DNA from: a bacterium
Lineage (GTDB): Bacteria > UBP6 > UBA1177
Length of the DNA stretch: 40,646 nt
Assembly (NCBI GenBank): GCA_017645765.1
Contig: JAGCNV010000093.1
Location: 1 to 40,646, forward strand
Direction of reading: 5' to 3'
Shown here in pieces: positions 774-36,400 of the stretch (the stretch's first letter is position 1; every line of letters begins with the position of its first letter). Both the position numbers and the translations under genes were made by a program. A model generated the notes under the pieces. The model had not been told where the DNA came from and ran no database searches. It was given only the letters and a program-made list of their open reading frames with translations.

Positions 774-1940
774 ATGGAAGAAAAAAGAACGAGTTTGCTT
801 GAAAACAGCTTTATCTGGTTCGGTGCGGCGGTGTCGATTGCCGAAATTCTCACCGGTACTTACTTCGCGCCGCTTGGCTTCAAAAACGGATTTCTTGCGA
901 TAATTTTAGGCCACATAATCGGCTGCGCGATGCTTTTTCTTGCAGGCGTTGTCGGCGGAAAAGTGCGTCTTTCCGCTATGGATTCTGTAAAAATGAGCTT
1001 CGGCGAAAAGGGCGGGATTTTATTCGCAGTTCTCAACATAATGCAGCTTTTGGGCTGGACCGGGATAATGATCTATGACGGCGCCCTTTCGGCAAACGGC
1101 CTCGTTTCGGCAGGGAACTGGGTATGGGCGCTTGTGATCGGCGTTCTCATTGTCCTTTGGGTCATGTTCGGGATCGTCAACGTTACCAAAATCAATAGCG
1201 TGGCAGTCACTGCGCTTCTTGTCCTCACCGTGATTTTAAGTGTGAAAATATTTACCGGTGAAGGTGCGGCGGTATCGGCTGAAGATGTGATGAGTTTCGG
1301 TGCGGCTGTAGAACTTTCGGCGGCAATGCCACTTTCATGGCTGCCGCTCATCAGCGACTACACGAGCAAGGCTGAAAAACCGGTCAAGGCCTCGGCAGTC
1401 AGTTCCGTTATCTACGGCATAGTCAGCTGCTGGATGTACACGATCGGCATGGGAGCCGCGATTTTCACAGGAGAAAGCGACCTTGCTCAGATAATGATAA
1501 AAGCAGGACTCGGTGCAGGACTTGTCATCATCATCTTTTCGACAGTCACGACCACATTTCTTGACGCGTATTCGGCAGGAATTTCGGCAGAATCGGTTTC
1601 AACGAAGCTCAAATCCAAGGCAGTCGCAGTCGCAGCGGCTGTTCTCGGAACCATCGGCGCAATACTCTTCAACATGGATGACATCACCGATTTCCTCTAC
1701 CTCATCGGCTCGGTTTTTGCCCCGATGACAGCGGTTTTGATCGCAGATTTCTTCATTCTGAAACGCCGCACGATCGAAAAAGCATTCGTCTGGACAAATC
1801 TCGTTGTCTGGGTAATCGGTTTCGTGCTTTACCGCTATCTCATGACAGTCGATTTCATTCTCGGGAACACCCTTCCAGACATGCTCATAACGATGGTTAT
1901 CTGCGTTGCGGCGAATAAAGTTGTCGGAAAAAAGGCTTAA
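774..1940 (+). CDS. cytX: Hydroxymethylpyrimidine transporter CytX (NCS1 family)
   Basis: A 388-aa polytopic inner-membrane permease of the NCS1 (cytosine/allantoin) family. The N-terminal segment LLENSFIWFGAAVSIAEI followed by TGTYFAPLGF is characteristic of the CytX subgroup, which is found in thiamine gene clusters and thought to import HMP. About eleven or twelve hydrophobic segments are visible along the whole length. The ATG follows the thiD stop with no gap and has a GGAGG inside the thiD end, so translation is coupled. Its stop overlaps by four bases, on the opposite strand, the stop of the esterase gene. Function is inferred from family and from the thiD neighbour; no transport data are implied. 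Confidence 0.88.
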   Translation: MEEKRTSLLENSFIWFGAAVSIAEILTGTYFAPLGFKNGFLAIILGHIIGCAMLFLAGVVGGKVRLSAMDSVKMSFGEKGGILFAVLNIMQLLGWTGIMIYDGALSANGLVSAGNWVWALVIGVLIVLWVMFGIVNVTKINSVAVTALLVLTVILSVKIFTGEGAAVSAEDVMSFGAAVELSAAMPLSWLPLISDYTSKAEKPVKASAVSSVIYGIVSCWMYTIGMGAAIFTGESDLAQIMIKAGLGAGLVIIIFSTVTTTFLDAYSAGISAESVSTKLKSKAVAVAAAVLGTIGAILFNMDDITDFLYLIGSVFAPMTAVLIADFFILKRRTIEKAFVWTNLVVWVIGFVLYRYLMTVDFILGNTLPDMLITMVICVAANKVVGKKA

Positions 1941-2608
1941 TCCAGTAGATTCTTAATCCCTTTCGCCGTTCTCAGAATAGTTTCCGTGAAGTGGTTCCCG
2001 GGATTTAATTCAAAAACAGTCTGGATAGTGCGCGATTTGTAGATCTCAGCGAGTTTTTCTGTGTTTTTCCGCACCGGAGCAAGGTTTTTGTCGCGTGTTT
2101 TCGCTTCGGTATCCCCCAGCGAAAGGTAGATCAAATCAGGGGTTTTCGCGAATTTGTTCGCTTCGGCGAATTCGGTGAATCCTGGGAACCAAAGCGATCC
2201 CGAAACGCTTGCGACACGGCTGAAAATATCGGTTCTGTATGCCGCGTAAAGGGCAAAAAGTCCCGCCAGCGAATAACCTGCAATCGCGGTAAATTCAGGC
2301 TCGAAGCCAAGTTTCGCACGGATTTCAGGCATAATTTCATTTGTCAGTTTTTTGATATATTCGTCTGCGCCGCCGAAACCGTATTTGTTGTTTCCTATCG
2401 TTGGAGCCGGCCACGGAGAGAGATCGTGATTCCAGTTGAGATTTCCGATAGCGGCGAGGGCGAAATTATCGCAGCCTAGTTCTGCGCACTTCTCGAAAAC
2501 TTCCTTCCCTTCGCCCTGGAATGTGTGAAGAATCACTAACGGAATCTCGTTGATAGACTTGGTTTTTGTAAAAATTTCAAGGGTTTTGCCTGAAATACTG
2601 AGTTGCAT
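1937..2608 (-). CDS. Alpha/beta-hydrolase esterase (IroE/Fes-like putative esterase)
   Basis: A 223-aa cytoplasmic alpha/beta hydrolase. The nucleophile elbow is GYSLAG, preceded by FTAIA, followed by FALYAAYR and then VSGSLWFPGF, as in putative esterases of the enterochelin-esterase/IroE type. The C-terminal NPGNHF supplies the probable catalytic His. I chose ATG 2608 over a longer frame beginning at 2647 because GGAG lies five bases upstream and because this start sits one base beyond the helicase stop (TGA, 2610-2612). The gene is thus the translationally coupled last member of the sngA-to-sngC strand. No signal peptide is visible. The substrate is unknown; whether it is a passenger or works with the defence genes is open. 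Confidence 0.72.
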   Translation of the reverse strand: MQLSISGKTLEIFTKTKSINEIPLVILHTFQGEGKEVFEKCAELGCDNFALAAIGNLNWNHDLSPWPAPTIGNNKYGFGGADEYIKKLTNEIMPEIRAKLGFEPEFTAIAGYSLAGLFALYAAYRTDIFSRVASVSGSLWFPGFTEFAEANKFAKTPDLIYLSLGDTEAKTRDKNLAPVRKNTEKLAEIYKSRTIQTVFELNPGNHFTETILRTAKGIKNLLD

Positions 2609-2609
2609 T

Positions 2610-4856
2610 TCAACTCCGGTTTGAATCGGTTTTTTGTGACCATTCAAGTACGCGCTTTTTCATCCCCTCGACATCGAGGATACCGAACGCGAAACCTTTT
2701 CTCACAAGGTCGACCGGAATAAATTCGTCATATTTTTCAAAAACGGGATTTTCTTTCGGATAGACGAGTTCCATCGGGTCGATCCCTTTCAAAGCCTCTT
2801 CCATTGTGACTTTGTAGAAAGTTTCAGGGTCGGCTTTCATCGTGAACTGCATGAAATAAGGCCGCGACGGAGCAAGACCTTTCAAACCAAGCTTTGAAGC
2901 GCATCGTATTTTAAGAAAGCGTTCGAGTGCGATGAATGCGTAAGTCCCGAGCCACGGAAAAAGCGCCCACATGTTGCCGCCCAAATGAACGAGCGGAGAA
3001 TTTCCGGCTGCCGATTTTCTGAAAGTTTCCCTTGAATCACTAAGTCGGCAGCGGGCATGACGCATGAGGTAAGGATAAACTTTGTCCTCAGTCAGGACTC
3101 CTTTCATCCGCTCCAGAATGTGAGTGTGGATATCACCCGCGACATCGCCGAAATATGCGGGGATATTCCCTTTGACAAGCGTGCAGTAGACGATCCTCTT
3201 TTTGTGATCGACTTCGTCAACAGCCCAGACACGCCCTGCGATCGCGATTTTTTCACCGGCTGGCGGCGGTTTCACGATCGTGCCAAGCTCTTCGGAGCCT
3301 GTTTTCACCGAATATTCGATATTTTCCTGGAATACGGCGTAAAATTTGTAGTTGTTGACTATTCTTTCTCCGGCAATACCGACGATAAGACCTCCGTTTT
3401 CGGTGCGGCTGATATGCCCGATGTTTATCAGGTGTTTAAGCAGGATCTTGAAATCATCCTGCGTTATCCTTCTGAAACAGTTGAGCGGAAGCACTTTTGA
3501 GGCAAGTTCTGCCGGCGTCATCTCTCCGCATGAAGCAAGCGTGCTCATTGTCTGGTGATAGAGCAGACTGAAAGGAAGCCTGTCAGTTTTCGGAGGCTCG
3601 ACAAAACGTTCCTCGATGTAAAGCTGCACCAGCGCGATCCCCTGAACAAGATACCACGGAATGAGTTCCGGCATCATCGCCCTCGATTCGGGGTGGTCTT
3701 CACGCATTACGAAATGCATCTCTGACGGGTCGCCGCGTCTGCCGGTCCTTCCGAGCCTCTGCAGGAAGCCTGAAACTGTAAAAGGGGAATCGATATGAAA
3801 AGCGCGTTCAAGACGGCCGATGTCGATGCCGAGTTCCAGTGTGGCTGTTGCGCAAACCGATTTAAGCGAAGAGTCGTCTTTCATCTCTTCTTCCGCACTC
3901 TCCCGGTATGAAGCCGAAAGGTTGCCGTGATGGATCAGAAAACGCTCCGGCTCGCGGTTTATTTCGCAGTACTGCCGCAGATTCTGGCAGACCGATTCAC
4001 ACTCTTCTCTCGAATTTGTAAAAATAAGACACTTTTTGCCGCGTGTATGTTCGAAAATATAGGCTAGTCCCGGATCAGCCGCTTTGGGAGCGGTATCGGT
4101 CGGTTTTTCTTCAGGAGTTTCTTCCGGAATCACATTATCGGAATCTGCCTGCGGATCTGTGTTGTAGAAATGCTCCATACTGAGCCGCCACACTTCCTTT
4201 CCGCCGTCAAAACGCGGGATCACGGTTTCTCTTTTACTTCCGGCAGAAAGAAATTTTCCCGCCGCTTCGGGATCCCCGATAGTAGCCGAAAGGCCGATCC
4301 TTCTCGGGTCGCACCCGGCAATGCGGCAAAGACGCTCGATAAGGCAGAAAGTCTGCATTCCTCTGTCACCGCGCAAAAGAGAGTGGATCTCGTCAACGAC
4401 TACAAAACGCAAGTCTCCGAAAAGAGCCGGAATTTCCATATGCTTGTTTATCAGAAGCGATTCAAGCGATTCGGGCGTTATCTGAAGGATCCCCGCGGGT
4501 TTTTTTATGAGTTTTCTTTTCTGTGTCTGCGGAACGTCGCCGTGCCAGCGGTAAACCGGGATCGCAGCTTCTTCGCAAAGCTCGTTTATCCTTCCGAACT
4601 GGTCGTTGATGAGAGCTTTAAGCGGCGCGATATAGAGAACTCCGACACTCGATGACGGATCTTCCTCAAGCATGGTCAAAATCGGGAAAAATGCCGCCTC
4701 GGTCTTTCCTGAAGCGGTCGAAGCCGATATAAGAACATTGCTGTCGCTCCCGAAAATCGCTTCTCCCGCCGCATTCTGCACGGCACGGAGCATTTTCCAG
4801 CCGCTGCGGTAGATATAATCCTGAATAAAGGGTGAATAACGGGCAAAAACGTTCAT
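2610..4856 (-). CDS. sngC: Lhr-like DEAD/DEAH superfamily 2 helicase, probable Shango SngC
   Basis: A 748-aa SF2 helicase. Motif I is ASTASGKT (residues 45-52), motif II is DEIH (155-158), motif III is SAT (190-192) and motif VI is QRLGRTGRRG (366-375), so both RecA lobes are complete. About 370 further residues form a C-terminal Lhr-like region. This is the family called BrxHI in BREX and the helicase of the three-gene Shango anti-phage system. The ATG overlaps the stop of the upstream ATPase gene as ATGA and is preceded by GGAG. With the ATPase (4853-6184) and the TerB-domain protein (8286-9767) on the same strand it makes up the Shango gene set. The system assignment rests on gene content; family membership as an Lhr-like helicase is firmer. 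Confidence 0.82.
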   Translation of the reverse strand: MNVFARYSPFIQDYIYRSGWKMLRAVQNAAGEAIFGSDSNVLISASTASGKTEAAFFPILTMLEEDPSSSVGVLYIAPLKALINDQFGRINELCEEAAIPVYRWHGDVPQTQKRKLIKKPAGILQITPESLESLLINKHMEIPALFGDLRFVVVDEIHSLLRGDRGMQTFCLIERLCRIAGCDPRRIGLSATIGDPEAAGKFLSAGSKRETVIPRFDGGKEVWRLSMEHFYNTDPQADSDNVIPEETPEEKPTDTAPKAADPGLAYIFEHTRGKKCLIFTNSREECESVCQNLRQYCEINREPERFLIHHGNLSASYRESAEEEMKDDSSLKSVCATATLELGIDIGRLERAFHIDSPFTVSGFLQRLGRTGRRGDPSEMHFVMREDHPESRAMMPELIPWYLVQGIALVQLYIEERFVEPPKTDRLPFSLLYHQTMSTLASCGEMTPAELASKVLPLNCFRRITQDDFKILLKHLINIGHISRTENGGLIVGIAGERIVNNYKFYAVFQENIEYSVKTGSEELGTIVKPPPAGEKIAIAGRVWAVDEVDHKKRIVYCTLVKGNIPAYFGDVAGDIHTHILERMKGVLTEDKVYPYLMRHARCRLSDSRETFRKSAAGNSPLVHLGGNMWALFPWLGTYAFIALERFLKIRCASKLGLKGLAPSRPYFMQFTMKADPETFYKVTMEEALKGIDPMELVYPKENPVFEKYDEFIPVDLVRKGFAFGILDVEGMKKRVLEWSQKTDSNRS

Positions 4857-6184
4857 ATAGTGAACTCCGCGAAATCTTCCTCGGTCTCATCGGAAACGGC
4901 TTCCGATTTGGTGTATGTGAAATCGTCTGACTGCATGAGGTCAGCCATTGTCATAGTTGGATGCTGATACATCAGATCAAGAAGTTCGATGAAATCTCTG
5001 ATGACTTCTCGCGGAGTGATGTTATTATCTGCTCCGATCCTGCCGTATTCAAGTTTGATGAAGGCAGTGAGGTCGTCAACGTTGATCTTGCGCTGATATC
5101 CGTAAAGTCCTGCATGCATATCAGCGAGTTTTTCGCATAAAACAAGCATCTCTTCCGCAGTCAGAGGCTCAAGTCTTATCACCGGCGCAAGCATGTCACG
5201 GGCACCCTCTCTCGAAAATTTTCCTTCGGCAAGGCGCGAACGGAGCGCTTCATAGCTGTAAACTCCGCGTCTTTTGTCATCGACTGCCTGCGGTGTCGCA
5301 CCCATGATTATCCCTAAATACCGGGCTTTCCCCTGCAATGTGTCGTTATACATCGTGAGCATTTTTTCGTAATTATACTGGCGTGTTATCGAATTCGGGA
5401 TCTTGTAGATGTTCACGAGTTCGTCGATCATTATCATCATTCCGGCGTATCCCGCGAGCCTGAAAAAGAGGGCGAAAAGTTTGAGATAGTCGTACCAGTC
5501 GTCGTCGGTGATTATGATGTTGACTCCGAGTTCTTCCTTTGCCTCGCGTTTTGTCGCGTATTCGGCGCGGAACCAGCGGACGACTTTCATTTTTGTTTCG
5601 TCGTTTCCCTCGGAATATGCGCGGTAATAGAGCGAAAGAAGCCGCGCGAACTCGAATCCGTGCACAAGTTCGCTAACTGCGCTGGTCACGGCGTAAATTT
5701 TTCTGTCAACAGCCGCAGCCAAAGCCGGATCATCGGGCGAAAACCCGTATTCCTGCATAGTTTCAGACTGCACCGTGTTTATCCAGCGGTCAAGAACAAG
5801 CGTCAGAGCGCCACCTTCCGGTTTTGTTTTGGTCGAAAGATTGCCTATCAGCTCTCTGTAAGTCGCCAGACCCTGTCCGTGTGTTCCCTGCAAGCGTCTT
5901 TCTGGCGAAAGGTCTGCATCGGCGACAATAAAACCTTTGTCCATCACATAGTTTCGTATCGTCTGGATCAGAAAACTCTTTCCGGAACCGTATTTTCCGA
6001 CGATAAAGCGGAAAGAAGCCCCTCCTTCCGCGATGATCCCGACATCGTGAAGCAGAGCTTCGATCTCGCTTTTCCTGCCGACCGCGATGTAGGGCAGCCC
6101 GATCCTCGGCACAACGCCTCCTTTCAGCGAATTTATGACTGTCTGGGCTATACGTTTTGGAACGATTCTCTTTTCTTCAGCCAT
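4853..6184 (-). CDS. sngB: P-loop ATPase of the BrxD/DUF2791 type, probable Shango SngB
   Basis: A 443-aa cytoplasmic ATPase. The N-terminus (RIAQTVINSLKGGVVPRIGL, then a GRKSE segment) is typical of BREX BrxD/DUF2791 proteins. Walker A is GKYGSGKS (residues 63-70) and Walker B is MMIMIDE (249-255). An arginine-rich stretch with an AAA-like sensor region follows around residue 310. ATG 6184 has GGAG seven bases upstream and overlaps the end of the nuclease gene by eight bases. The stop is coupled to the helicase start (ATGA). In Shango the ATPase acts with a TerB-domain protein and a helicase, and both partners are present on this strand. BREX is less likely because no PglX, PglZ or BrxC is visible, but only this window can be judged. 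Confidence 0.82.
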   Translation of the reverse strand: MAEEKRIVPKRIAQTVINSLKGGVVPRIGLPYIAVGRKSEIEALLHDVGIIAEGGASFRFIVGKYGSGKSFLIQTIRNYVMDKGFIVADADLSPERRLQGTHGQGLATYRELIGNLSTKTKPEGGALTLVLDRWINTVQSETMQEYGFSPDDPALAAAVDRKIYAVTSAVSELVHGFEFARLLSLYYRAYSEGNDETKMKVVRWFRAEYATKREAKEELGVNIIITDDDWYDYLKLFALFFRLAGYAGMMIMIDELVNIYKIPNSITRQYNYEKMLTMYNDTLQGKARYLGIIMGATPQAVDDKRRGVYSYEALRSRLAEGKFSREGARDMLAPVIRLEPLTAEEMLVLCEKLADMHAGLYGYQRKINVDDLTAFIKLEYGRIGADNNITPREVIRDFIELLDLMYQHPTMTMADLMQSDDFTYTKSEAVSDETEEDFAEFTI

Positions 6185-7259
6185 TTATTTCTCCGGAATT
6201 TTCGACATGTTTTTTTCCCAGACAATTTATAATCTCTGCGATAAAATTTGAGACATCTTCTATCTTTGCATCAAAGTCGAAAGTTTGATCGAATTTAAAA
6301 CGCCCGTTTTCGAGTTTTCCTTTAAGTCCTACTTGTTTGATATAATCATCCAGATTCACTTTATTCGATTTAGGTCTTGTAAAAAGAACAAATTCCCATC
6401 CATTCAGAGTCAAACGGGAATCAAGAGCGATATCAATATCCTTGTTTGGATAATAATCGACGACGGCAATATCAAAAAGTTTCGGAATCTCTCGCCAGAG
6501 CCATATTTTTACATTTTTATCTTCAATTTTTTCTCTAATTAATTGGCTTACCTCTTTTACGATATCTCGCAAATTCTTTCTAAACTCTTCTATTTTGCCA
6601 GCGAATTCTAGAGAAAGTTTCTCATGTTCACGCAAAAATTTCAAGAATTCCTCATCCATATTTTCACCCCGTTCAAGATTTTCGATATTGTAAAAATAAT
6701 CCAACAGGAAAGGTATATATTTCGGATTCGCCTCTTCTAAATAATTTCCAATATTTTCCTTAACTTTACTAAAGAAATCTTCGTATGTTACAAACTTGAA
6801 CTTTTTAGTTCCTTTCTTACTTTCATCTATAGGAGATAGGCTCAAAACAATTCCTATAGGTTCATCTTTGCCTTCTTCTGATGCTTTTTCATAATAATCT
6901 TTTAGATCGTTATATAATTCGGCATAAATCTTGTTTTCTATAACGATATTTATTCGTTCGCTATACAGAAGCAGATCTATATATTTGCCGTTTTTAGTAT
7001 ACACTTCCGTCTCTGATTCAAAATCTTCAGGATAATCATTTGCATTTAATCCAACGGATTCCAATAAGCTTTTCACAAATAAATTTTTTAAATTATGCTC
7101 TCTATGCGTATCCAGAAAAAAAGCCAGAATGTTACTTGAAACTTTTTCTCGGCTGGGGAATCCGCAAATTGAAATGAATGATTCGTCTCTTGGCGTCTTC
7201 TTTGGTAAATTATCGAATTCACTCAAAAGAATTTTATATCTTTGTGTATTGTCAGTCAT
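6177..7259 (-). CDS. PD-(D/E)XK superfamily nuclease-like protein (PDDEXK_4 type)
   Basis: A 360-aa protein. Its N-terminal third looks like the PD-(D/E)XK nuclease family often annotated PDDEXK_4. An early glutamate region (SNILAFFLD) is followed by the core KYIDLLLYSERINIVIENKI, with the Asp and the ExK catalytic spacing on adjacent strands, then a long helical C-terminal half. The DNA is conspicuously A+T-rich (some 60-base lines under 35% G+C) compared with the flanking sngA, sngB and sngC genes, which suggests separate acquisition. ATG 7259 has no clear Shine-Dalgarno; it lies 18 bases after the 75-aa gene. Its stop overlaps the sngB start by eight bases. It may cut DNA as part of a defence function, but the substrate and its link to Shango are inference. 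Confidence 0.7.
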   Translation of the reverse strand: MTDNTQRYKILLSEFDNLPKKTPRDESFISICGFPSREKVSSNILAFFLDTHREHNLKNLFVKSLLESVGLNANDYPEDFESETEVYTKNGKYIDLLLYSERINIVIENKIYAELYNDLKDYYEKASEEGKDEPIGIVLSLSPIDESKKGTKKFKFVTYEDFFSKVKENIGNYLEEANPKYIPFLLDYFYNIENLERGENMDEEFLKFLREHEKLSLEFAGKIEEFRKNLRDIVKEVSQLIREKIEDKNVKIWLWREIPKLFDIAVVDYYPNKDIDIALDSRLTLNGWEFVLFTRPKSNKVNLDDYIKQVGLKGKLENGRFKFDQTFDFDAKIEDVSNFIAEIINCLGKKHVENSGEING

Positions 7260-7277
7260 GGTTGTGAAATTAAAAAA

Positions 7278-7505
7278 TCACTTTGATTCTTTGTTTTTCT
7301 GTTCTTCAAGATAATGCTGATAAATGTATGCAGCTCCTTCGCGGTAAAGTCCTGTTTCCTTATCGTTAAGTGCTTCAAAAATCCGCGAGGTATAAAGTTT
7401 TTTCAATGCTTCTTCGTATTCTATTTTTTCGTCTTCAACGATGAAAGCTGCGATTTCTTTTGTGATAGAATCGATAAGCCAGTCTGTTTTGTCCGCTTTA
7501 CACAT
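7278..7505 (-). CDS. Small hypothetical protein of the DUF3791/DUF3990 cassette
   Basis: A 75-aa acidic, mostly helical protein. Features include DWLIDSITKEIAAFIVEDEKI, then a segment ending TGLYREGAAYIYQHYLEE. I recall similar small proteins following DUF3990 genes, but know no assigned function. ATG 7505 is preceded by GGAGAC, and the gene overlaps the end of the DUF3990 gene by eight bases, so the pair is coupled. Its size and acidity would suit an antitoxin or accessory protein for the ADP-ribosyltransferase-like neighbour; this is a guess from context. Confidence 0.7.
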   Translation of the reverse strand: MCKADKTDWLIDSITKEIAAFIVEDEKIEYEEALKKLYTSRIFEALNDKETGLYREGAAYIYQHYLEEQKNKESK

Positions 7506-8013
7506 AAATAGTCTCCAGTTTTTTCAGTAATTTTACGGCTTTTTCCGTATGGAACGAATACTGCATCGAAAGTTCTTTGTAAGTCATACGCTTTTTGAGC
7601 ATTTCAATGTCTATGAATTTCTGCTCATATTGCTGAAACAAAACAGCCATATCATCATTTGCGACAGGACCGTGGACAATATCATACTTGCAATCCTGAT
7701 TGCATAGCGGATCAGTCAAATCTGAAAAATAACGATTTCTGTTGTTCATAACGAACAAAGCCCACTCCTCAGACGGAATTGTCAAAAAATCCTTTATTTT
7801 CAAATCATTGCTTCTCATAAAACTGTCATTGATTTCATAGACATTCAAAATCGGCTTGCCGTAACCTTTTATTCTCACTGTTCGTTTTGCCATATTCTCA
7901 GCTTGGACACGAATATCAGACAGGTAAAATCCTCTGCCGAAATCTCTGAAAGGCTTGCACATTTTCAGAACGATTTCTTTAACTTCGGTATTGCTCCCGT
8001 GATAGAGAATCAA
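7498..8013 (-). CDS. DUF3990 protein, ADP-ribosyltransferase-like probable toxin
   Basis: A 171-aa protein matching DUF3990, a family placed in the ADP-ribosyltransferase fold group. The N-terminus MILYHGSNTEV and the following DFGRGFYLS (residues 24-32) are the two conserved ART-like strand motifs: His and Ser of the first, Tyr of the second. YDIVHGPVANDDM is the DUF3990 signature near residue 125. The start is a TTG at 8013 with a strong GGAGG six bases upstream; its first bases overlap the DUF3791 stop as TTGA. It is the centre of a DUF3791-DUF3990-small protein trio commonly seen together. Likely role: NAD-dependent modification of a host or phage target, held in check by a neighbour. Family is firm, activity is inferred. 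Confidence 0.8.
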   Translation of the reverse strand: MILYHGSNTEVKEIVLKMCKPFRDFGRGFYLSDIRVQAENMAKRTVRIKGYGKPILNVYEINDSFMRSNDLKIKDFLTIPSEEWALFVMNNRNRYFSDLTDPLCNQDCKYDIVHGPVANDDMAVLFQQYEQKFIDIEMLKKRMTYKELSMQYSFHTEKAVKLLKKLETIYV

Positions 8014-8234
8014 AGCGTTCCTCCGTTCTGACGGCAGATCTCTGCCATATCCTCGACAGCGTCTTCGATCGAAAGAGTGTGTTCGATCTCGTAATGCTCT
8101 TTCAAAAACGCTATCGCTTTGTTGTTGTAAAGGTAAATAAAAGCGTCTTTTTTTGAAAGATCGTGAGCAGCGGCAAAACCACTTACACAGGCAACCATGT
8201 AGGAAATCTGGTTATTTTGTTTAAGAATGGCCAT
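8010..8234 (-). CDS. DUF3791 protein, probable antitoxin or partner of DUF3990
   Basis: A 74-aa protein matching DUF3791: the opening ISYMVACVSGFAAAHDLS, then KKDAFIYLYNNKAIAFL and a C-terminal SIEDAVEDMAEIC helix. It is the first gene of the embedded trio. ATG 8234 has GGAG nearby, and a TTGTTA-16-TATAAT promoter lies just upstream at 8265-8292. The gene ends in a TTGA overlap with the DUF3990 start. First position and small size are usual for an antitoxin, but no experimental assignment is known to me. Confidence 0.8.
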   Translation of the reverse strand: MAILKQNNQISYMVACVSGFAAAHDLSKKDAFIYLYNNKAIAFLKEHYEIEHTLSIEDAVEDMAEICRQNGGTL

Positions 8235-8264
8235 TTGAGTGTCTCCGTCTCAAAAAAACAGAGG

Positions 8265-8292
8265 ATTATAGCAGAAAAAGGATTTTTAACAA
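8265..8292 (-). promoter_or_regulatory. Candidate sigma70 promoter for the embedded DUF3791-DUF3990 cassette
   Basis: On the minus strand TTGTTA (8292-8287) is followed after 16 bases by a perfect TATAAT (8270-8265). The -35 overlaps the sngA stop codon. The transcript would begin about 8258, some 24 bases before the DUF3791 ATG. This would let the cassette, and sngB/sngC behind it, be expressed independently of the pyrG-sngA transcript. Confidence 0.6.
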
Positions 8293-9767
8293 GGCTTTGA
8301 ATTTTGCAGCAGTTTCTCAACTTCTTCAACATAATCTTCAACGATTGCAAGTGTTTTTCCGTCACATTCAATGACGTTGTCGCCGATTTCGTCGAAAAGG
8401 GCGGCGTTTATCGTGTCGGCGACTACTGAGGGCATGAGATGTGCGGCTTTGATGTATTCGTCTGCGGAGCCTGTTTTAAGCAGGTTTCGCAGGATTTCTG
8501 TGTGGATCTTGTCAAGGAGGCCGTTTTCTTCGTTTTCGGGAAGTGTTTCGGCGGCGGTTTCTTCTTCGATCTCATCTTCAGTGAGGAGGCTTTCTCTTGT
8601 AAGAGCCGCATCGCTTCTGATCTTGTCCAAACCAGAAATGTCGATATTTATTTTCGGTCTTTTTGCTTCGGTTTCGGCTTTTTTATCTGCCGCCACGACC
8701 GCTTCGGCATACTGTGTCGCCCAGCTTTCATCAGGTTTTTTGCGTAAAGTTCTGCCGGTTTTCAGATATTTGCGGAAAACTCTCTCTCCTTCATGAAGAA
8801 GCGCGTAGAATTTTTCCTTGTCGAACATCATTTTTTCGTAGTATTCCTCATACCACACGCCGTTTTTGCAGAAATACCGTCTGCATTCGTCGATGCGGCA
8901 CTCTTTGTCGGAATCGGCGCAGTCGTCGTGGTAGAGCGCGTTGAAAAGAGGATGCCATTTTATTGTGTAGATCTGTCCGAAACATTCGGTAAAAAAGTCG
9001 AGACCGCATTCGTTGTATTTAGCCGAAACGCATTTCCAAAGTTCCGCGAAAAGGTGTTTTCCTTTACTTCCGTTTTCAGTGACAAGCGGAGAGAGGAAAA
9101 GGTCTTTTTCGGCAAAAAAACTGAGTGCCATAAATATCTCGTCATCCTTTTTTGATGCGGGTCTCCGCAGTATCGCAAGGTATGTGTCCGAAGCAAGCGT
9201 GAAAGGGTCGGCATACTGCGTGATCGTCTCAATCGGCAGCGAGTGTATCACGGCATAATCGAACATCCACTGCTTCAAATCTTTCTGAAGGAGCTTTTTC
9301 CCGAAACCGTAATCGGAAAAATCGGGAAAACTTCTGTCAAAATCCTCCATTTTTCTGAAGCCTTCTTCAGCTGAGTTTGTTCCGATGCCGCAGAGGAGTT
9401 CGTAGAGATAAAGATATGCGAAAGGAGGTTCAATAGGAGTGAAATTCCCTTTTCTCGCGGCAGTTCTCCAGGTGAAATACTTTCTTAACTGCCCCGCCGA
9501 AAGGTCGTGATAGGAGGGCGAATAGTGCATGCATACACCGCTCCAGCCGTGGAAATCGTCCTCGTAATCCTTCATGAACTCACCCTGACGGATGAAATTT
9601 TTTTTCTGCTGCCCGAAAGAGCCGTCGCCGTATTCGTAAAGTTTCATCATCTCCCAGATCTTCTGCGGGATATCGGGATCGTTTACTTCTGATGCGGTGA
9701 TGGGAGTGTCGTGGTACTGACTTTCGTTTAAGTTGGAGGAGTTTTCAAGGACGATTTCTTTTGCCAT
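8286..9767 (-). CDS. sngA: TerB-N/TerB-C domain protein, probable Shango SngA
   Basis: A 493-aa soluble protein. The N-terminal half contains the TerB-N signature LSAGQLRKYFTWRTAARKG (residues 89-107), followed by PPFAYLYLYELLCGIG. The middle is Lys/Glu-rich. The last ~100 residues look like TerB-C, with the segment INAALFDEIGDNVIECDG near the end. TerB-domain proteins paired with an ATPase and an SF2 helicase define Shango. ATG 9767 (MAKEIV) was chosen over an extension to 9887, which would overlap pyrG by about 100 bases. This start lies 17 bases beyond the pyrG stop, with AGG upstream. It is therefore probably co-transcribed with pyrG. SngA is separated from SngB by a ~2.1-kb cassette, which is unusual. 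Confidence 0.8.
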   Translation of the reverse strand: MAKEIVLENSSNLNESQYHDTPITASEVNDPDIPQKIWEMMKLYEYGDGSFGQQKKNFIRQGEFMKDYEDDFHGWSGVCMHYSPSYHDLSAGQLRKYFTWRTAARKGNFTPIEPPFAYLYLYELLCGIGTNSAEEGFRKMEDFDRSFPDFSDYGFGKKLLQKDLKQWMFDYAVIHSLPIETITQYADPFTLASDTYLAILRRPASKKDDEIFMALSFFAEKDLFLSPLVTENGSKGKHLFAELWKCVSAKYNECGLDFFTECFGQIYTIKWHPLFNALYHDDCADSDKECRIDECRRYFCKNGVWYEEYYEKMMFDKEKFYALLHEGERVFRKYLKTGRTLRKKPDESWATQYAEAVVAADKKAETEAKRPKINIDISGLDKIRSDAALTRESLLTEDEIEEETAAETLPENEENGLLDKIHTEILRNLLKTGSADEYIKAAHLMPSVVADTINAALFDEIGDNVIECDGKTLAIVEDYVEEVEKLLQNSKPC

Positions 9768-9784
9768 TAAATACCTGAAAGGAT

Positions 9785-11431
9785 CTATTTTTTCTCTTTT
9801 TTCTTTGCCAAAGCCGCCTTTACAAGCCCGTTGAAAAGCGGATGCGGATCGGTCGGTCTGCTTTTGAATTCCGGATGGAACTGGCATGCTTCGAAATATG
9901 GATGATCTGCAAGTTCGATCATTTCGACAAGTTTGCCGTCAGGCGAAGTTCCTGCAACTTTAAGCCCTGCTTTTTCCAGCTCTTCGCGGAAACGGCTTTC
10001 ATAGTTGAATTCGTAGCGGTGGCGGTGACGTTCACTGATGGATTCGCTCTTGTAAAGTTTTGCCGCTTTCGAGCCTTTTACAAGGTTGCACGGATATGCG
10101 CCGAGCCTCATCGTGCCGCCTTTTTTTGTAATTTTTCTCTGCTCGTCCATGAGGTCGATTACAGGGTGTTTCGTCTTTGTGTCGAATTCAGTCGAGTTCG
10201 CGTCCTTCCAGCCGAGAATATTCCTTGCGTATTCGATGACGCAGCACTGCATTCCGAGGCATATTCCCAGAAGCGGAACTTTGTTTTCACGGGCATATTT
10301 TATCGCGATGCACTTGCCGTTTACTCCGCGTGTACCGAAGCCGCCGGGGATAAGTATTCCGTCAGCCTTTTTGAGGAGTTTCGGATTTTTCTCCAGATCT
10401 TCGGCTTCAATGCATTCGACATGAACTTTCGAGTTGTTCGCCATTCCCGCGTGCTGAAGCGCTTCATGGACCGATTTGTAGGCATCTCTGATTGCGATGT
10501 ATTTGCCGACAAGTGCTATCGTGCATTCGTATTTCGGCTTTGTCGCCTTGCGGACAAGAGTGTCCCACTCGGTGTGGATGACTGGTTTTATCGGAAGTTT
10601 GAGCTGCTCAAGGATCCTGAGGTCAAGCTCCTGTTTCAGAAGTTCGCGCGGGACTGCATAAACTGAATCGGTGACGTCTTTTTCTTCGATTACACATTCG
10701 GGGCGGACATTGCAGAAAAGAGCGAGTTTATTGAGATGATCCTGCGGGATCGTCATTTCGGTGCGGCATACAAGGATGTCGGGGATTATACCGATGTTTC
10801 TGAGTTCAGCGACAGAATGCTGTGAAGGCTTGGTTTTGAGCTCTCCCGCCGCTTTCAGATAAGGAACAAGTGTGAGGTGGACGAAGCAGCTGTTTTCGGG
10901 GCCCACTTCAAAGCGGAATTGACGTGCAGCCTCGAGGAAAGGAAGCGATTCGATGTCGCCCGCGACTCCGCCGATTTCGCAAAGAACGATGTCGGCACCG
11001 CTTTCAGCCGCGCTGCGGAAGGCATCCTTGATCTCGTTCGTGATATGCGGAACGACCTGGACTGTGCCGCCTAGATACGCTCCGGCGCGCTCTTTTGCGA
11101 TGACAGACGAATAAATCCTTCCCGAAGTGTAGCTTGAAGCCCTTGTGCAGTGGACACCGGCAAAACGCTCGTAGTGGCCGAGGTCGAGGTCAGTCTCGTA
11201 GCCGTCATCCGTGACGAAAACTTCGCCGTGCTGATACGGGCTCATCGTTCCGGGATCGACATTGAGATAAGGGTCGAGTTTCTGCATGAAAACCTGATAT
11301 CCGCGGCTTTTAAGAATGAGTGCGAGCGATGCCGAAGTGATCCCTTTTCCTAAAGAACTCACTACTCCGCCGGTGATAAAAATGTACTTTGTCTGCTTTT
11401 TGCCTTTCGGCGATACGGTTTTTTTCTGCAT
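9785..11431 (-). CDS. pyrG: CTP synthase
   Basis: A 548-aa enzyme converting UTP, ATP and glutamine to CTP. The synthetase domain opens with [15 protein letters not shown] (ATP/UTP-binding). The C-terminal class I glutamine amidotransferase domain has the nucleophile in GICLGMQ and the His/Glu of FHPEFKS. Length matches the family (about 535-550). ATG 11431 (MQKKTVSP) has GGGAG six bases upstream and is preferred over the upstream in-frame 11461 start. The defence gene sngA follows within 17 bases, so the housekeeping gene may supply its transcription. Confidence 0.97.
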
Positions 11432-11482
11432 AACTTTCTCCCTTGAAAAAAATGTTGCCAAAAATGTTTAAAGAGCCTGCAC

Positions 11483-31503: not shown

Positions 31504-32541
31504 ATGGTATCAGAAAAACAGATGAATGAACTGGTAAAAACAAACAATGTTGTTTTTTATCAGACGGAAAACGCGGATGTTGTCGTAAATGTGGTTTACA
31601 AAGATGAAACTTTCTGGCTTACACAGAAAGCGATGGCTGTGCTGTTCGATTGCAGTGTGGATAATATTTCTCTACACTTAAAAAACATTTATGACAGCAA
31701 TGAACTTGAAAAAAATCGAACTGTCGAGGATTTCTCGATAGTTCAAAAAGAAGGCAACCGGTCAGTCAAACGCTCAATGGAATTTTACAATCTCGATGCG
31801 ATTATCGCAGTCGGCTACCGCGTAAATTCCAAAAAAGCGACAAAATTCAGACAGTGGGCAACAAAAACTCTGCGAGAATACATCACCAAAGGTTTTGTCA
31901 TCAACGAAAAACTTCTGAAAAACGGAAAGCCGTTCGGCAAAGACTATTTTGACGATTTACTTGAAAAAATACGCGAGATCAGAGCGAGTGAACGTCGTGC
32001 GTATCAGAAAATCACCGATATTTTCGAGCAGTGCAGCTGCGATTTCGATAAGAACAGCGAAATCACCAAAAATTTTTATGCTTTCGTGCAGAATAAACTT
32101 CATTTTGCAGTAAGCGGAAATACTGCCGCTGAAATTGTTTACAACCGTGCCGATTCGCGGAAAGAGCACATGGGACTGACAACATGGAAAAACTCGCCTG
32201 ACGGAAAAATTTATGAATCCGATGTCATAATCGCCAAAAATTATCTGAATGAAAAGGAGATCTCGCGCCTGAACCGCCTTGTCGCAATGTTCATCGACTA
32301 CGCCGAGTTGCAGGCTGAGGACGGTCATCTGATGAAAATGCAGGACTGCGTTGATGCTGTGAACCTTTTTTTAACGAGTGCCCGCCAGCAGGTGCTCGAA
32401 ACCAAAGGAAAAATCAGCCACGATCAGGCGATAAAAAAGGCTCTTAAGGAATATGATGTTTTCCGCATCATTCAGGACAGAGAATATATTTCAGAATTTG
32501 ACAGACAGACAAAAGAACTCGAAAAAAACAATCAGAAATAG
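31504..32541 (+). CDS. RhuM-family (virulence RhuM) protein
   Basis: A 345-aa protein of the RhuM family, widely found on pathogenicity and defence islands. Family segments: FYQTENADVVVNVVYKDETF, WLTQKAMAVLFDCSVDNIS (a helix-turn-helix-like start), the invariant-looking YNLDAIIAVGYRVNSKKATKFRQWAT and a C-terminal DYAELQAEDG. No catalytic residues are established to my knowledge; DNA binding is likely for the N-terminal part. AGAGGA precedes ATG 31504. It is alone on the plus strand between murG and the type III toxin-antitoxin locus, and its stop is 10 bases before a direct-repeat copy. Confidence 0.87.
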   Translation: MVSEKQMNELVKTNNVVFYQTENADVVVNVVYKDETFWLTQKAMAVLFDCSVDNISLHLKNIYDSNELEKNRTVEDFSIVQKEGNRSVKRSMEFYNLDAIIAVGYRVNSKKATKFRQWATKTLREYITKGFVINEKLLKNGKPFGKDYFDDLLEKIREIRASERRAYQKITDIFEQCSCDFDKNSEITKNFYAFVQNKLHFAVSGNTAAEIVYNRADSRKEHMGLTTWKNSPDGKIYESDVIIAKNYLNEKEISRLNRLVAMFIDYAELQAEDGHLMKMQDCVDAVNLFLTSARQQVLETKGKISHDQAIKKALKEYDVFRIIQDREYISEFDRQTKELEKNNQK

Positions 32542-32647: not shown

Positions 32648-33139
32648 CTATTTGCCTTGATATTGAGTGTATATCTGCTCAAGCAGTTTAATATCGCAGC
32701 ATCTTTGTTTGATGCGGATTTCGTAGTCTGCGAGTTCACTATCATCGGAAAGCAGCAGTTCTCGGAGCAAATTGGCCGTTTTCTGTATCTGAACAGTGTC
32801 GCTGCGGATTGCTTTGTATTGATTCTGCAAAAGACGGCGGTATTTTTCGTCGCTGATTTTTTCTATGTCAATAAGAATTAAAGCCGAATCCGTTACAGGA
32901 ATCATGTTGTTAAAATTGATTGCTCCGTATAAACCACCGGCTATTTTCCTGAAATCTACAGCATTTTTCATGGTTTTGTGTTTCGGTTTCGGGGAAGAAA
33001 ACGGTGCGTAGTATTTCACGCTGCCTATTTCAAGAACGATTCCGACATAAGGTCTGGTTTCGTGCTTGTTATCAGCAACTTTTTCATCATATCTTCTAAG
33101 AAAGTTTATGTAATCATCTTTCACATGATAAAATCTCAT
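32648..33139 (-). CDS. toxN: Type III toxin-antitoxin endoribonuclease, ToxN/AbiQ family
   Basis: A 163-aa ribonuclease toxin. Recognised by MRFYHVKDDYINFLRRYD at the N-terminus, RPYVGIVLEIGSVKYYAPFS, SPKPKHKTMKNAVDF, and GAINFNNMIPV, which are the ToxN/AbiQ core including the conserved Lys/His-rich SPKxKH loop. Family length is 160-180 aa. These enzymes cut A-rich sites in RNA and are held inactive by a repeat RNA antitoxin; several abort phage infection. ATG 33139 follows a GGGGG stretch. Directly upstream are the repeat RNA and its terminator, the classical locus order. Strong call. Confidence 0.93.
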   Translation of the reverse strand: MRFYHVKDDYINFLRRYDEKVADNKHETRPYVGIVLEIGSVKYYAPFSSPKPKHKTMKNAVDFRKIAGGLYGAINFNNMIPVTDSALILIDIEKISDEKYRRLLQNQYKAIRSDTVQIQKTANLLRELLLSDDSELADYEIRIKQRCCDIKLLEQIYTQYQGK

Positions 33140-33178: not shown

Positions 33179-33289
33179 TTTTTAAGTCCTCTGTTGTGGT
33201 CGAGGCTCACCGCTTTTTTAAGATTTCGCTTAATGGTGGAAACTCACCGCTTTTTTCAGTTTCCAATTAAGGTCGGAACTTACCTGCGC
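33148..33289 (-). ncRNA. Type III antitoxin RNA (ToxI/AntiQ-like tandem repeats)
   Basis: Three tandem units on the minus strand begin at 33284, 33248 and 33211 (spacing 36 and 37) and a fourth partial begins at 33174 inside the terminator (spacing 37). Units start GGTAAGTTCCGACC, GGTGAGTTTCCACC and GGTGAGCCTCGACC; each can pair GGT(G) with (C)ACC, and A-runs (AAAAAAG) precede the second and third units. Period, number, A-rich boundaries and this GGTGA...ACC pattern match the pseudoknot-forming ToxI/AntiQ antitoxins. The units are diverged from each other, which argues against simple recent slippage. Confidence 0.88.
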
Positions 33290-33403: not shown

Positions 33404-33474
33404 ACCTCAAACCGTGATTTTTGGAGATCTTCAGGATTGCAGGAAAGCGTTGCGGACTGCCCTAACGGACACAC
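33404..33474. repeat. Direct repeat copy 2: native 3' end of the giant modular gene
   Basis: The intact counterpart of 32552-32622. It holds the stop codon (33462-33464) and last codons of the giant Lcl_C gene plus 58 bases of downstream sequence. The antitoxin promoter, repeat RNA and toxN lie exactly between the two copies. Confidence 0.8.
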
Positions 33475-36400
33475 ATAGTATTTTGTCCGCTGTCATAGGT
33501 ATTTTTAATCTCCATAGAACCGCCGTTATACCGAACCGTCCAGATATTAGTATAGCCGGTGGTATAAAATGGATTTGTGGAAGAAGACCATGGCGTAGAC
33601 ATCAAATTTATATTCGGGAAATCAGATGCACGGTTATAGTTAAGGTTGAGAAGAGAAAGAAGTTCAAAAATGTTCGGTAACCGCCAGTCAGTGTATCCGG
33701 CATAAGTTGAATTTTCGCAGTAGGCAAGTGCTAATTTCCAAGTGTCGAATTTTGCAAAGTTTTTATTCCAGATAAGTCCGGTGAGGTTATCCGTAACAAT
33801 TTCATCTCCGTTTCTGGTCGAGACAGTTAATGTCGGACTTTCAGGTAGAATTTCACCCCTTACGCAACGGACATAGAGCGTGGTGTCATTGGAATAAAAC
33901 TTCAATTCACCACCATAATAACTATGAAAATCTATGCCCCAAGAATTAGCAGAGTTGCGTGCATATTTTTTTGATGTCCAGAAAGCACTGTCGCTGCTTA
34001 TTCCTCCTGCAAAATAAGTTGTATCCACTGGAGGATCGTTCCGACTGTAATCAACTATACTCAGCATCTCTTTCGGTTTCGGGAGTCTCCAGTCAGTGTA
34101 TCCTGCATATTCAAGATCCGCGCAGTAACTTATCGCATGCTGCCAGTCAAATTTGTCTGCCGGAATACTCTTCTGCCATTCGAGACCGAGATTATTGTCA
34201 ACTACAACTTTTTCTTCAGGATGTCCGACATCTGGAGTTTTTATAGTAAAACTTTTCGGTGTACATGCTCCTGCTTCTGTATATTGCGCATCCTGCCCGT
34301 AGAACTCTCCGCTTTCCGCACAGCTTATCTCATTAGCGGAATCGTCATAGCATTTTATTATTCCTGTGCAGATATTGCCGAAAGCATGTTTTGTCATGCA
34401 TCTCGAACCGTTCCAGAAGTAACCGTTTATGCAGCCGCAGGTAAATTTTGTTCCGTCTATCGGAGTGCATATTCCGTCTGAACCGTCCATCGAAGCGCAC
34501 TTGTTGTCAAAACACGGATCGGTTTGGCAAGTTGAGCTTTGTGCATCCCAGATATATCCTTCAACGCAGCCGCACGAAAATTCGCTTGCAGTCAACGGAA
34601 TACATATTCCGTCTGAATGTTCCATAGTGCAGGAGTTTGCCGTACACGGACTCGGCTCACAGTTTTTCCCGGACAGAAATTCTCCTTCCCCGCACAAATC
34701 GGAGCGGACACAACGCGTCAGCGGCATATTATAGTTGTTTGTTTTACTGCGTGTACTAACCTCACCGCTGGAAAAGTTGGCATACACAACGTTTCCGGTG
34801 CTGTAATTAAGTGTCGTTGTAGAAGACCAGAAAGTTTTGGAAGGCATATTCGGAAAATCCGAAGCGGGACTCTTTGCTTCATAATTTACAAGGGAAATAA
34901 GTTCGTTGATATTCGGAAGTCTCCAGTCCGTGTAACCGCCGTAATTCAGGTTTTCGCAGTATACAAGAGCATCGTTCCAGAGCATGTCCTCTGCATAACT
35001 TTTTTGCCAATAAAGATTGGTAGTCAAATCTTTTATGACTTCATTACTTACGTTCTCAAATGATGAGTTTTCCGGCATAGTGTGTTGAGGGTCGGTATCT
35101 CTTACGCAAATAAAATTGCCGCTATAAGTTTTTGTGTAAGTAGTAAGTATTCCCGATCCACTGGAAATCCACCATGCTTTATTTCCATCTGCCAACGATT
35201 CGTTGTTCGTCCAGAACCAACCAGAAGTTTCATTAAAATAGTCAGTGTTGAATGCGGGATTTAATTTTCCATAATCAATAATTGTCTGCCATTCTTTGAC
35301 GGTCGGCAGTCTCCAGTCCGTGTATCCTCCGAAACCGAGTTCTTCGCAGGAAGTTACAGACTCTCCCCATGATTTTGTGCGTACAGTTCTGTCCCATTCA
35401 AGCCCCGTATTATTGTCAATAACAGTTTTCTGGGAAGAAGTTCCGCCAAAAACAAATTTTTTAGGTATGCAATAACCCATGTCGGCATACTGTGCATCCT
35501 GACCGTAGAAATCATCTCCTTCTTGAGCACAGCCCGTTTCTGTCTCGTTGTCGTAACATTTAAGAGTCCCAGTGCAGAGATTGCCAAGTGCCACGTTTTC
35601 CGAGCGGCAACCGGTCTTGCCCCACCAAAGGTATTCTTCTTCACATTCACAGGAATAAGGCAGAGAGAGGTTGTTTGTTTCTTCACATACTCTCGTAGAA
35701 TTATTAACATCGTCACACGGATTATGTTCACAAGGATGATCTACACATTTGCCGTCCAGCGGATAATAACCTGTATCGCAGACATATTTACATTCGGTAT
35801 CGCTTGCAGCTACGCTATACTTAGGTTCAAGCGTCGGAATCCATTTTTTGCCGTCCCAAGTTTGAGTAATAGTAGGTGCATAGTTCCACAGTGAATGCTC
35901 GGGACGCGGGTTGCAGTCCATGATTCTTGTGTTTGCGACACACGTTCCGTTGCCGTCCCATGAATAGTTTTCCCTGCATTTGAAACGGCATTCCGTCAGG
36001 CTTTCCTCTTCGCTGAAAATTCCGGAATCACCGGGTTCCCATGCCGCCCCTTTCCATTCCTGCAAAACTGTCGCGACCGAGTTCCACTGCGCGTTTTGTG
36101 GAAGTCCCCGGCAAGGTACTGTCTGTTTCTTTGCGACGCAAAGACCGCCCTTCCACTCGTAATTGTCAAAGCACTTGAAAATGCAGTTTTCAGTCGTCGG
36201 TGTTTCGCCGAAATCACCTGAAAGTTTCGGCAACCACTCGCTTCCGCTCCAAGTCTGAGTGATGCTTTCAACCGAGTTCCACTCTGCGTTTGCCGGAAGG
36301 CCCGTACAGTCTCTCGTTCTTGTCGCAGGAACGCAGGATTTCTGGTCATCGGAAACAGTGTAGTTTTCAAGGCACTTGAAGCGGCACTCTTCAGTTGTCG

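What the first reader, a model, noticed from the sequence alone, without database searches (positions are those of the whole stretch)
2610..9767. Probable Shango anti-phage system split by an inserted cassette
TerB-N/TerB-C protein, BrxD-like ATPase and Lhr-like helicase occur on one strand, the gene set of Shango. Normally three adjacent genes, here sngA is separated from sngB by about 2.1 kb. sngB and sngC are still coupled by an ATGA overlap. The interruption either added new effectors to the system or is an insertion that the operon tolerates because a new promoter drives the rear genes. The layout as a combined system is, as far as I know, not described.
Basis: partly seen in the sequence, partly recalled or inferred. 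Interest (0 to 1): 0.8.

Follow-up and report, generated by a model that had tools for sequence, protein, structure and literature searches.

The report
Phage-defence operon hosting swappable defence genes
A complete three-gene anti-phage system (Shango) in a gut bacterium carries four extra genes, a likely toxin-antitoxin set and a DNA-cutting enzyme, between its first and second genes, and relatives carry different extra genes at the same spot, so the operon seems to serve as a docking site for further defences.

Summary
SngA (8286-9767), SngB (4853-6184) and SngC (2610-4856) are intact, on one strand and match PADLOC Shango models best. PglZ is absent from all 15 genomes of the genus, so this is not BREX. 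The 2.1-kb gap holds four same-strand genes: DUF3791, DUF3990, a small partner (together PADLOC PDC-M13) and a PD-(D/E)XK nuclease (PDC-S26). DUF3990 has a predicted ADP-ribosyltransferase fold, closest to ParT/RES toxins. It is no assembly error: 10 of 13 Shango genomes of the genus carry inserts at sngA-sngB, 2 are uninterrupted, 1 has sngA elsewhere. Outside the genus that gap exceeds 300 nt in 1 of 71 measurable loci. Cargo differs between species. Cassette genes are often much less diverged than the Shango genes around them (dS 0-0.45 against 0.26-1.1), so cassettes move between species. A promoter-like element at the sngA stop codon probably drives the cassette and sngBC. Embedding of defences in restriction-modification and BREX loci is known, including an ADP-ribosylating toxin pair. 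I found no report of it in Shango, nor of repeated cassette exchange at one junction. Whether cassette and Shango work together is untested.

The parts
8286..9767 (-). sngA, TerB_N/TerB_C protein, 493 aa; starts 17 nt after pyrG
   Evidence: PADLOC SngA 4.8e-66; Pfam TerB_N, TerB_C
8265..8292 (-). promoter-like element (TTGTTA, 16 nt, TATAAT with TG before it) whose -35 box overlaps the sngA stop codon
   Evidence: highest-scoring of 11 promoter-like sites in 1800-10100; the element is at the cassette front in 8 of 8 genomes with triad-type inserts and about 45 nt before sngB in G014, not in G013
8010..8234 (-). DUF3791 protein, 74 aa; probable antitoxin of the triad (inferred)
   Evidence: Pfam DUF3791 5e-21; PADLOC PDC-M13 2.1e-32; intact in 8 of 8 relatives' triads including G005, where DUF3990 is truncated
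7498..8013 (-). DUF3990 protein, 171 aa, predicted ADP-ribosyltransferase-fold toxin; TTG start
   Evidence: Pfam DUF3990 1.1e-42; PDC-M13 4.9e-50; model pLDDT 88.6, ParT Z 9.1
7278..7505 (-). third small gene of the triad, 75 aa
   Evidence: PADLOC PDC-M13 4.2e-21; no Pfam family over cut-off
6177..7259 (-). PDDEXK_4 nuclease, 360 aa, D95, E108 and K110 kept; its stop lies inside sngB
   Evidence: Pfam PDDEXK_4 6.5e-16; PADLOC PDC-S26 7e-81; these residues invariant in 5 of 5
6185..6194 (-). 10 nt before sngB identical to the sngA tail of the uninterrupted operon in G006; contains the likely ribosome-binding site
4853..6184 (-). sngB, BrxC/BrxD-like ATPase, 443 aa
   Evidence: PADLOC SngB 3.5e-190; Pfam BrxC_BrxD 5.8e-169
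2610..4856 (-). sngC, Lhr/BrxHI-like DEAD-box helicase, 748 aa; overlaps sngB by ATGA
   Evidence: PADLOC SngC 2.8e-276
9785..11461 (-). pyrG, gene upstream of sngA (flank, not part of the system)
   Evidence: contiguous with sngA in 7 of 7 loci that hold both on one strand in this order; not so placed in G002, G004, G008, G012, G013; the name is recalled from the sequence, no family search was run on it
1937..2647 (-). esterase-like gene downstream of sngC (flank)
   Evidence: Pfam Esterase 1.3e-11; contiguous with sngC in 7 of 7 loci that hold both

Best explanation
This is a complete Shango operon that has become a nested docking site for other defence-type genes. Shown by sequence: a module of PDC-M13 (DUF3791, DUF3990, small partner) plus a PD-(D/E)XK nuclease sits at the sngA-sngB junction, in one tight same-strand gene run with sngB and sngC behind a promoter-like element; cassette contents differ between species and have crossed species more recently than the Shango genes diverged. 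Inferred: sngA is read from the pyrG side, while the cassette promoter drives the cassette and sngBC, so the operon tolerates the insert and its expression is tied to it. Inferred function: layered immunity. Shango acts on invading DNA with its ATPase and helicase; the nuclease is an extra cutter; the DUF3990 ADP-ribosyltransferase, held in check by DUF3791 (perhaps with the third gene), is a back-up that stops the infected cell if a phage disturbs the operon, and also penalises loss of the locus. The modules are probably biochemically independent and only co-expressed.
For: Shango identity. Core in the genus: SngA and SngB in 13 of 15 genomes, 9 of 9 good ones; SngB in 0 of 4 other genomes of the family. 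Insert at sngA-sngB in 10 of 13, contiguous in G006 and G012, G002 with sngA elsewhere; outside the genus a gap over 300 nt in 1 of 71 measurable loci, L115, which shows two SngA ORFs in a row. Other same-strand pairs in the same species show no inserts: pyrG-sngA 7 of 7, sngC-esterase 7 of 7, two further pairs 5 of 5 each, one 4 of 4; the same automatic count gives inserts in 9 of 10 for sngA-sngB and 2 of 9 for sngB-sngC. Cassette transfer: G003 and G004 share the Sel1 cargo at dS 0 while sngA is 0.51, sngB 0.60, sngC 0.75; G008 against G004 DUF3990 dS 0.03, sngA 0.90. Scar: 19 nt of the sngA tail remain before sngB in G003 and G004. Toxin-antitoxin logic: in G005 DUF3990 stops after about 28 residues while DUF3791 is whole. 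Triads also stand alone elsewhere. ART fold.
Against: No transcription, toxicity or phage data exist for any of these genes. Several cargoes are not defence-like (Sel1 and Lcl_C secreted-type proteins), and one lies on the opposite strand (KilA-N in G013 and G014), which fits neutral insertion as well. PADLOC 'PDC' families are candidates; PDC-S01 and PDC-M13 are very common in rumen genomes (PMC13356809, passages), so finding them nested is weak evidence of function. Promoter-like sites in the region are no more numerous than in shuffles (11 against 10.3), the element is absent from G013, and its sameness among recently exchanged cassettes is not independent evidence. The transfer signal is uneven: the third small gene reaches dS 0.44, the Sel1 gene 0.45 and DUF3791 0.24 in some pairs. 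The Foldseek match for DUF3990 is E 1.9e-3, just short of 0.001, and Z values of 7 to 8 are common for unrelated models.
Confidence: 0.62

Rival explanations
1. Neutral hitchhiking. Mobile toxin-antitoxin and single-gene modules land in a permissive site after sngA and persist by addiction; they give no benefit to Shango and Shango gives none to them.
For: Triads are found free-standing in several species; non-defence and opposite-strand cargo; DUF3990 has decayed in G005.
Against: Other gene junctions nearby carry no inserts; DUF3791 is identical in protein in 7 of 8 copies and 71 of 74 in the eighth, and DUF3990 is 98-100% identical among intact copies compared, though recent transfer explains part of this; the cassette is tightly joined to sngB.
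Confidence: 0.22
2. One integrated machine: the nuclease is the effector that SngB and SngC deliver to DNA, and the ART triad is a sensor-linked arm; the seven genes form a new Shango subtype.
For: Translational overlap of nuclease and sngB in G000; PD-(D/E)XK nucleases are the commonest auxiliary effectors in BREX and related loci (PMC12839542, section 35 part 1 read).
Against: The nuclease is found in only 5 of 15 genomes over most of its length, plus a fragment in G002; other Shango operons of the genus do without it; triads live without Shango.
Confidence: 0.12
3. A BREX remnant rather than Shango.
For: SngB and SngC have BrxD and BrxHI as second-best PADLOC matches.
Against: Shango models score far higher; PglZ in 0 of 15 genomes of the genus.
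Confidence: 0.01
4. Shango here has been domesticated for a housekeeping DNA role, and the nested genes are incidental (not exclusive of the other readings).
For: Present in 9 of 9 good genomes of the genus, beside pyrG in 7 loci; SngB is 93-99% identical between species, 79-82% against G002 and G012.
Against: In G012 and G002 SngA is only 34-38% identical to the others, in G002 it sits elsewhere, and sngC has moved in G012; SngB absent from the other 4 genomes of the family.
Confidence: 0.1

Closest known systems
Shango (SngABC) of P. aeruginosa PA14 and E. coli (PMC10250203, passages read)
   Same: TerB-domain protein, ATPase and helicase
   Different: There a three-gene operon; here four genes lie between sngA and sngB
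DarTG2 embedded in a type I restriction-modification operon of E. coli (PMC12255303, passages read)
   Same: A toxin-antitoxin module, ADP-ribosylating (recalled for DarT), nested between the genes of another defence system
   Different: Host is Shango, toxin family is DUF3990 (DarT-DUF3990 relation not tested), with a nuclease added; repeated exchange between species shown here
TgvAB embedded in a type I RM cluster of V. cholerae (PMC11411939, passages read)
   Same: A second defence inside a first
   Different: Different host system and cargo
Backup nucleases inside BREX loci (PMC12839542, section 35 part 1 and passages read)
   Same: PD-(D/E)XK nucleases within a core defence locus with related ATPase and helicase
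   Different: The term Shango has 0 occurrences in that paper
PADLOC phage defence candidates PDC-M13 and PDC-S26
   Same: Direct profile matches; PDCs are said to come from guilt-by-embedding (PMC12988326, passages; the Payne 2024 preprint was seen only as a reference)
   Different: Which host systems they were found in could not be read
ParT/ParS and RES/Xre toxin-antitoxin pairs
   Same: ART fold of the toxin, Z 9.1 for ParT
   Different: Sequence identity about 10%; partners are DUF3791 and a second small protein; targets unknown

Membership tests
Shango | SngA with TerB_N and TerB_C | tested here: met
Shango | SngB BrxD-like ATPase, better match to SngB than to BrxD | tested here: met
   3.5e-190 against 1.5e-47
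Shango | SngC Lhr/BrxHI-like helicase, better match to SngC than to BrxHI | tested here: met
   2.8e-276 against 5.8e-121; the SngC model alone is unspecific, hitting 13 of 14 control genomes
Shango | all three genes in one same-strand locus in the order A, B, C | tested here: met
   strict adjacency, the usual layout but not used here as defining, is broken between A and B
Shango | anti-phage activity | not testable with these tools
   needs plaque assays
BREX | pglZ | tested here: not met
   PF08665 in 0 of 15 genomes of the genus
PDC-M13 (PADLOC candidate) | DUF3791, DUF3990 and a small third gene in a row | tested here: met
PDC-S26 (PADLOC candidate) | PDDEXK_4 nuclease with active-site residues | tested here: met
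ADP-ribosyltransferase toxins (ParT/RES type) | ART fold | tested here: met
   predicted model only; top solved matches are ARTs
ADP-ribosyltransferase toxins (ParT/RES type) | sequence relation to RES/ParT families | tested here: inconclusive
   no PDB sequence match up to E 5; Pfam gives DUF3990, with ART-PolyVal only at 0.049
ADP-ribosyltransferase toxins (ParT/RES type) | toxicity neutralised by a neighbouring antitoxin | not testable with these tools
   needs expression tests; indirect hint only: toxin broken, DUF3791 whole in G005
Embedded defence modules | complete candidate module between core genes of another defence operon | tested here: met

The most novel reading that the evidence does not exclude
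Across this genus the Shango operon is its own defence hotspot: exchangeable cassettes (ART toxin-antitoxin triad with nuclease or Sel1 protein, KilA-N, MmeI type IIG enzyme, ATPases) enter at the sngA-sngB and sngB-sngC junctions, are swapped between species by recombination through the sng genes themselves, and bring the promoter that now drives sngBC, so that immune operon and toxin-antitoxin module have become mutually dependent.
Probability: 0.35. Interest if true: 0.72.

Novelty: new variant of a known kind. Interest (0 to 1): 0.5.

Why it matters
It extends guilt-by-embedding to Shango, whose mechanism I found no account of, with a natural series of empty, occupied and re-occupied sites in one genus. 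That series makes it testable whether nested genes are effectors, insurance or passengers, and how an operon survives having its middle rewritten. It also gives the little-studied DUF3791-DUF3990 pair a predicted ADP-ribosyltransferase fold and a defence context.

Tried and rejected
BREX remnant: rejected. Assembly error: rejected, as the same order is in other species' assemblies; the split sngB of G009 is an exact 141-nt contig overlap. Transposon insertion with target duplication: a 10-nt repeat at both cassette edges exists only in G003 (2 of 500 shuffles reach it); the other 8 of 9 junctions tested have 5 to 8 nt, so I do not claim it; no transposase was seen among the ten cargo proteins scanned. 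G014 has the cassette promoter element and, just before sngB, 16 nt equal to the nuclease 3' end; I read it as a lost cassette, but a precursor state is not excluded. L111 DUF3990 hit beside Shango: spurious, a methyltransferase-like protein. PtuA match of the Sel1 protein: judged repeat similarity only. No SngB in the phage records, and the single-protein scans of viral contigs gave no SngB or nuclease relative. A first promoter pattern was wrongly spaced by one base and found nothing, also in the whole genome; the corrected pattern was run on the window and on fetched loci only, so its genome-wide frequency is unknown. The nine copies listed were found with a pattern that fixes both hexamers, so their sameness there is by construction; one search shows the eight cassette-front copies without that filter. 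My ORF listing hid DUF3791 in G003 and G005; one search shows it whole in both. The Fisher tests (A-B 2.9e-10, B-C 0.002) treat related species as independent and so overstate; the B-C table left out G012 and G014 and counted G011, where only the MmeI-sngC side is seen. One script stopped before its last three comparisons.
Full report
1. What is there. On the minus strand the order is pyrG, sngA (8286-9767), DUF3791 (8010-8234), DUF3990 (7498-8013), a 75-aa gene (7278-7505), a PDDEXK_4 nuclease (6177-7259), sngB (4853-6184), sngC (2610-4856), esterase. From DUF3791 to sngC every junction overlaps or leaves at most 18 nt. The three Shango proteins match PADLOC SngA, SngB and SngC best, far above BrxD and BrxHI. 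The four inserted genes match PADLOC PDC-M13 (three genes) and PDC-S26. Nucleotide-binding and catalytic motifs of SngB, SngC and the nuclease are kept (SngB Walker positions invariant in 9 of 9 aligned proteins; nuclease D95, E108, K110 in 5 of 5; SngC motifs read by eye from the sequence).

2. Is it real and is it unusual? SngB and SngA occur in 13 of 15 genomes of the genus, 9 of 9 of those at least 90% complete and at most 5% contaminated; the two without (G001, G007) are 77% and 72% complete. SngB is in 0 of 4 other genomes of the family and in no other of the 28 genomes searched for the phylum. At the sngA-sngB junction 10 of 13 genomes carry an insert with both genes on one contig; G006 and G012 are contiguous; in G002 sngA lies on another contig among other genes. 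At sngB-sngC 7 of 13 are contiguous; G010, G002 and G009 have inserts (G009 read across two contigs that share a 141-nt end); G011 and G014 show an MmeI-type gene on one side only; in G012 sngC is elsewhere.

3. Outside the genus. Of 80 SngB loci from a GTDB scan, one (L052) is evidently the G014 contig itself (same length and genes). In the other 79 the A-B distance was measurable in 71 and over 300 nt in one (L115, with two SngA ORFs in a row); of the 8 not measured, 7 have SngA as the overlapping neighbour in the gene list and one is cut. B-C was measurable in 71 and over 300 nt in two: L079 (two opposite-strand genes, one UxuA-like) and L129 (a 163-aa P-loop-like protein). One of the unmeasured, L098, has no sngC next to sngB but an opposite-strand DUF4143 gene up to the contig end, the cargo type also found at this junction in G002 and G009. 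That scan reports the best 80 of 566 loci, so it covers near relatives of SngB. Five annotated plasmid Shango loci show no inserted annotated gene, one with a 322-nt A-B gap; a sixth had no annotation. Within the genus, the other same-strand gene pairs seen contiguous and in at least four fetched loci had no inserts.

4. What the cargo is. A-B: triad plus nuclease in G000, G008, G009, G011; the same in G005 but with DUF3990 cut to about 28 residues while DUF3791 is whole; triad plus a Sel1-repeat protein in G003, G004, G010; Lcl_C protein plus opposite-strand KilA-N in G014, and the same plus an ATPase_2/DUF234 protein in G013. B-C: MmeI type IIG enzyme, overlapping sngC by 4 nt, in G010 and G011; AAA_14/DUF4143 ATPase in G002 and G009; secreted-type proteins. 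Ten cargo or neighbouring proteins were scanned; the rest are named by similarity. So cargo is largely, not wholly, of defence-candidate type.

5. Movement. Between species the triad, nuclease and Sel1 genes show dS of 0 to 0.45, in most pairs under 0.2 for DUF3791, DUF3990 and the nuclease, where sngA shows 0.26 to 1.1 and sngC 0.3 to 1.0 among cassette-bearing genomes. Identity falls off outside the exchanged stretch: G003 and G004 are 99-100% identical across the Sel1 part while sngA is 66-96% and sngB 79-96% per 100 nt. The last 19 nt before sngB in G003 and G004 equal the end of sngA in the uninterrupted G006 operon, and 10 nt do so in five others; G010 and G013 keep only 5 and 2. This indicates that contiguous A-B is ancestral and that the insert entered the last codons of sngA; the 10-nt part also holds the likely ribosome-binding site, so selection alone could keep it.

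6. Promoter. The highest-scoring promoter-like site of 1800-10100 is at 8292-8265 with an extended -10; the number of sites in the region is as in shuffles. The same element fronts the cassette in all eight genomes with triad-type inserts (hexamers alike, spacer varying) and lies about 45 nt before sngB in G014, where triad and nuclease are gone; G013 lacks it. In the 164 loci then fetched, the 23 with a match are all copies of these nine places. Its genome-wide frequency was not measured.

7. DUF3990. A model from 16 sequences has pLDDT 88.6 and pTM 0.84. Foldseek's first hit is a RES toxin (E 1.9e-3, probability 0.99). VIA-align puts ParT first (Z 9.1, 3.6 A, 130 residues), then MbcT and other ARTs including PARPs. 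H5, G28, F29 and Y30 are invariant in two alignments, in keeping with an H-Y type ART site (recalled). The triad occurs free-standing in the genus: L163 shows all three by similarity; L156, L157 and L160 have a Pfam DUF3791 gene before DUF3990 and a further small gene after it. DUF3990 relatives are also in 22 viral-contig loci and 7 phage records.

8. Interpretation. The most likely reading is a complete Shango operon serving as a nested docking site, with co-expressed but probably independent modules giving layered defence; the toxin set may also lock the locus in place. Hitchhiking without benefit is the main rival. Shown: gene content, recurrence, transfer, scar, recurring promoter-like element. 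Inferred: transcription, toxin action, layering.

9. Known context. Shango gave modest (10 to 100-fold) protection on plates against many, not all, phages in PAO1 (PMC10250203, passages). Embedding is published: TgvAB in type I RM (PMC11411939, passages), DarTG2 in type I RM (PMC12255303, passages), nucleases in BREX loci (PMC12839542, passages and section 35 part 1). PDC families are described as found by guilt-by-embedding (PMC12988326, passages). My searches showed no paper on inserts in Shango, but the library lacks preprints and most subscription papers, and one search listed only 40 of 203 papers.

Noticed in passing
window 32648-33139 (-) and 33197-33270: ToxN toxin (Pfam 4.8e-53) preceded by two 37-nt direct repeats (78% alike; the tandem-repeat finder lists none): a likely type III ToxIN module, next to a RhuM gene at 31504-32541.
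   Followed up: partly
window 33462-40556 (-): A 2364-aa open frame with six Lcl_C stretches, reaching to near the window end; the same domain is in the cargo protein of G013.
   Followed up: no
L042 and L043 (G006): Two sngA copies 90% identical over 518 nt, both at contig ends, one in an uninterrupted sngABC operon and one beside pyrG.
   Followed up: partly
L038 (G002), L044 (G012): SngA is only 34-38% identical to the rest of the genus while SngB is 79-82%, so sngA seems to have been replaced or evolves apart; in G012 a TGA splits it.
   Followed up: no
window 6177-7259 and relatives (A2): The nuclease is a mosaic between species: stretches of 100% DNA identity next to patches with many changes and small indels; dN close to dS against G005.
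   Followed up: partly
L163 3177-4121 (G008): A second DUF3791-DUF3990-third-gene triad, about 50% identical, on the same contig about 16 kb from Shango.
   Followed up: no
window 9767-9785: sngA starts 17 nt after pyrG, so Shango may be read from the promoter of an essential gene (essentiality recalled); contiguous in 7 of 7 loci with that order.
   Followed up: partly
L098 11320-12300: In a Bacteroidales MAG sngB is followed by an opposite-strand DUF4143 gene at the contig end instead of sngC: a possible sngB-sngC interruption outside the genus by the same cargo type.
   Followed up: partly
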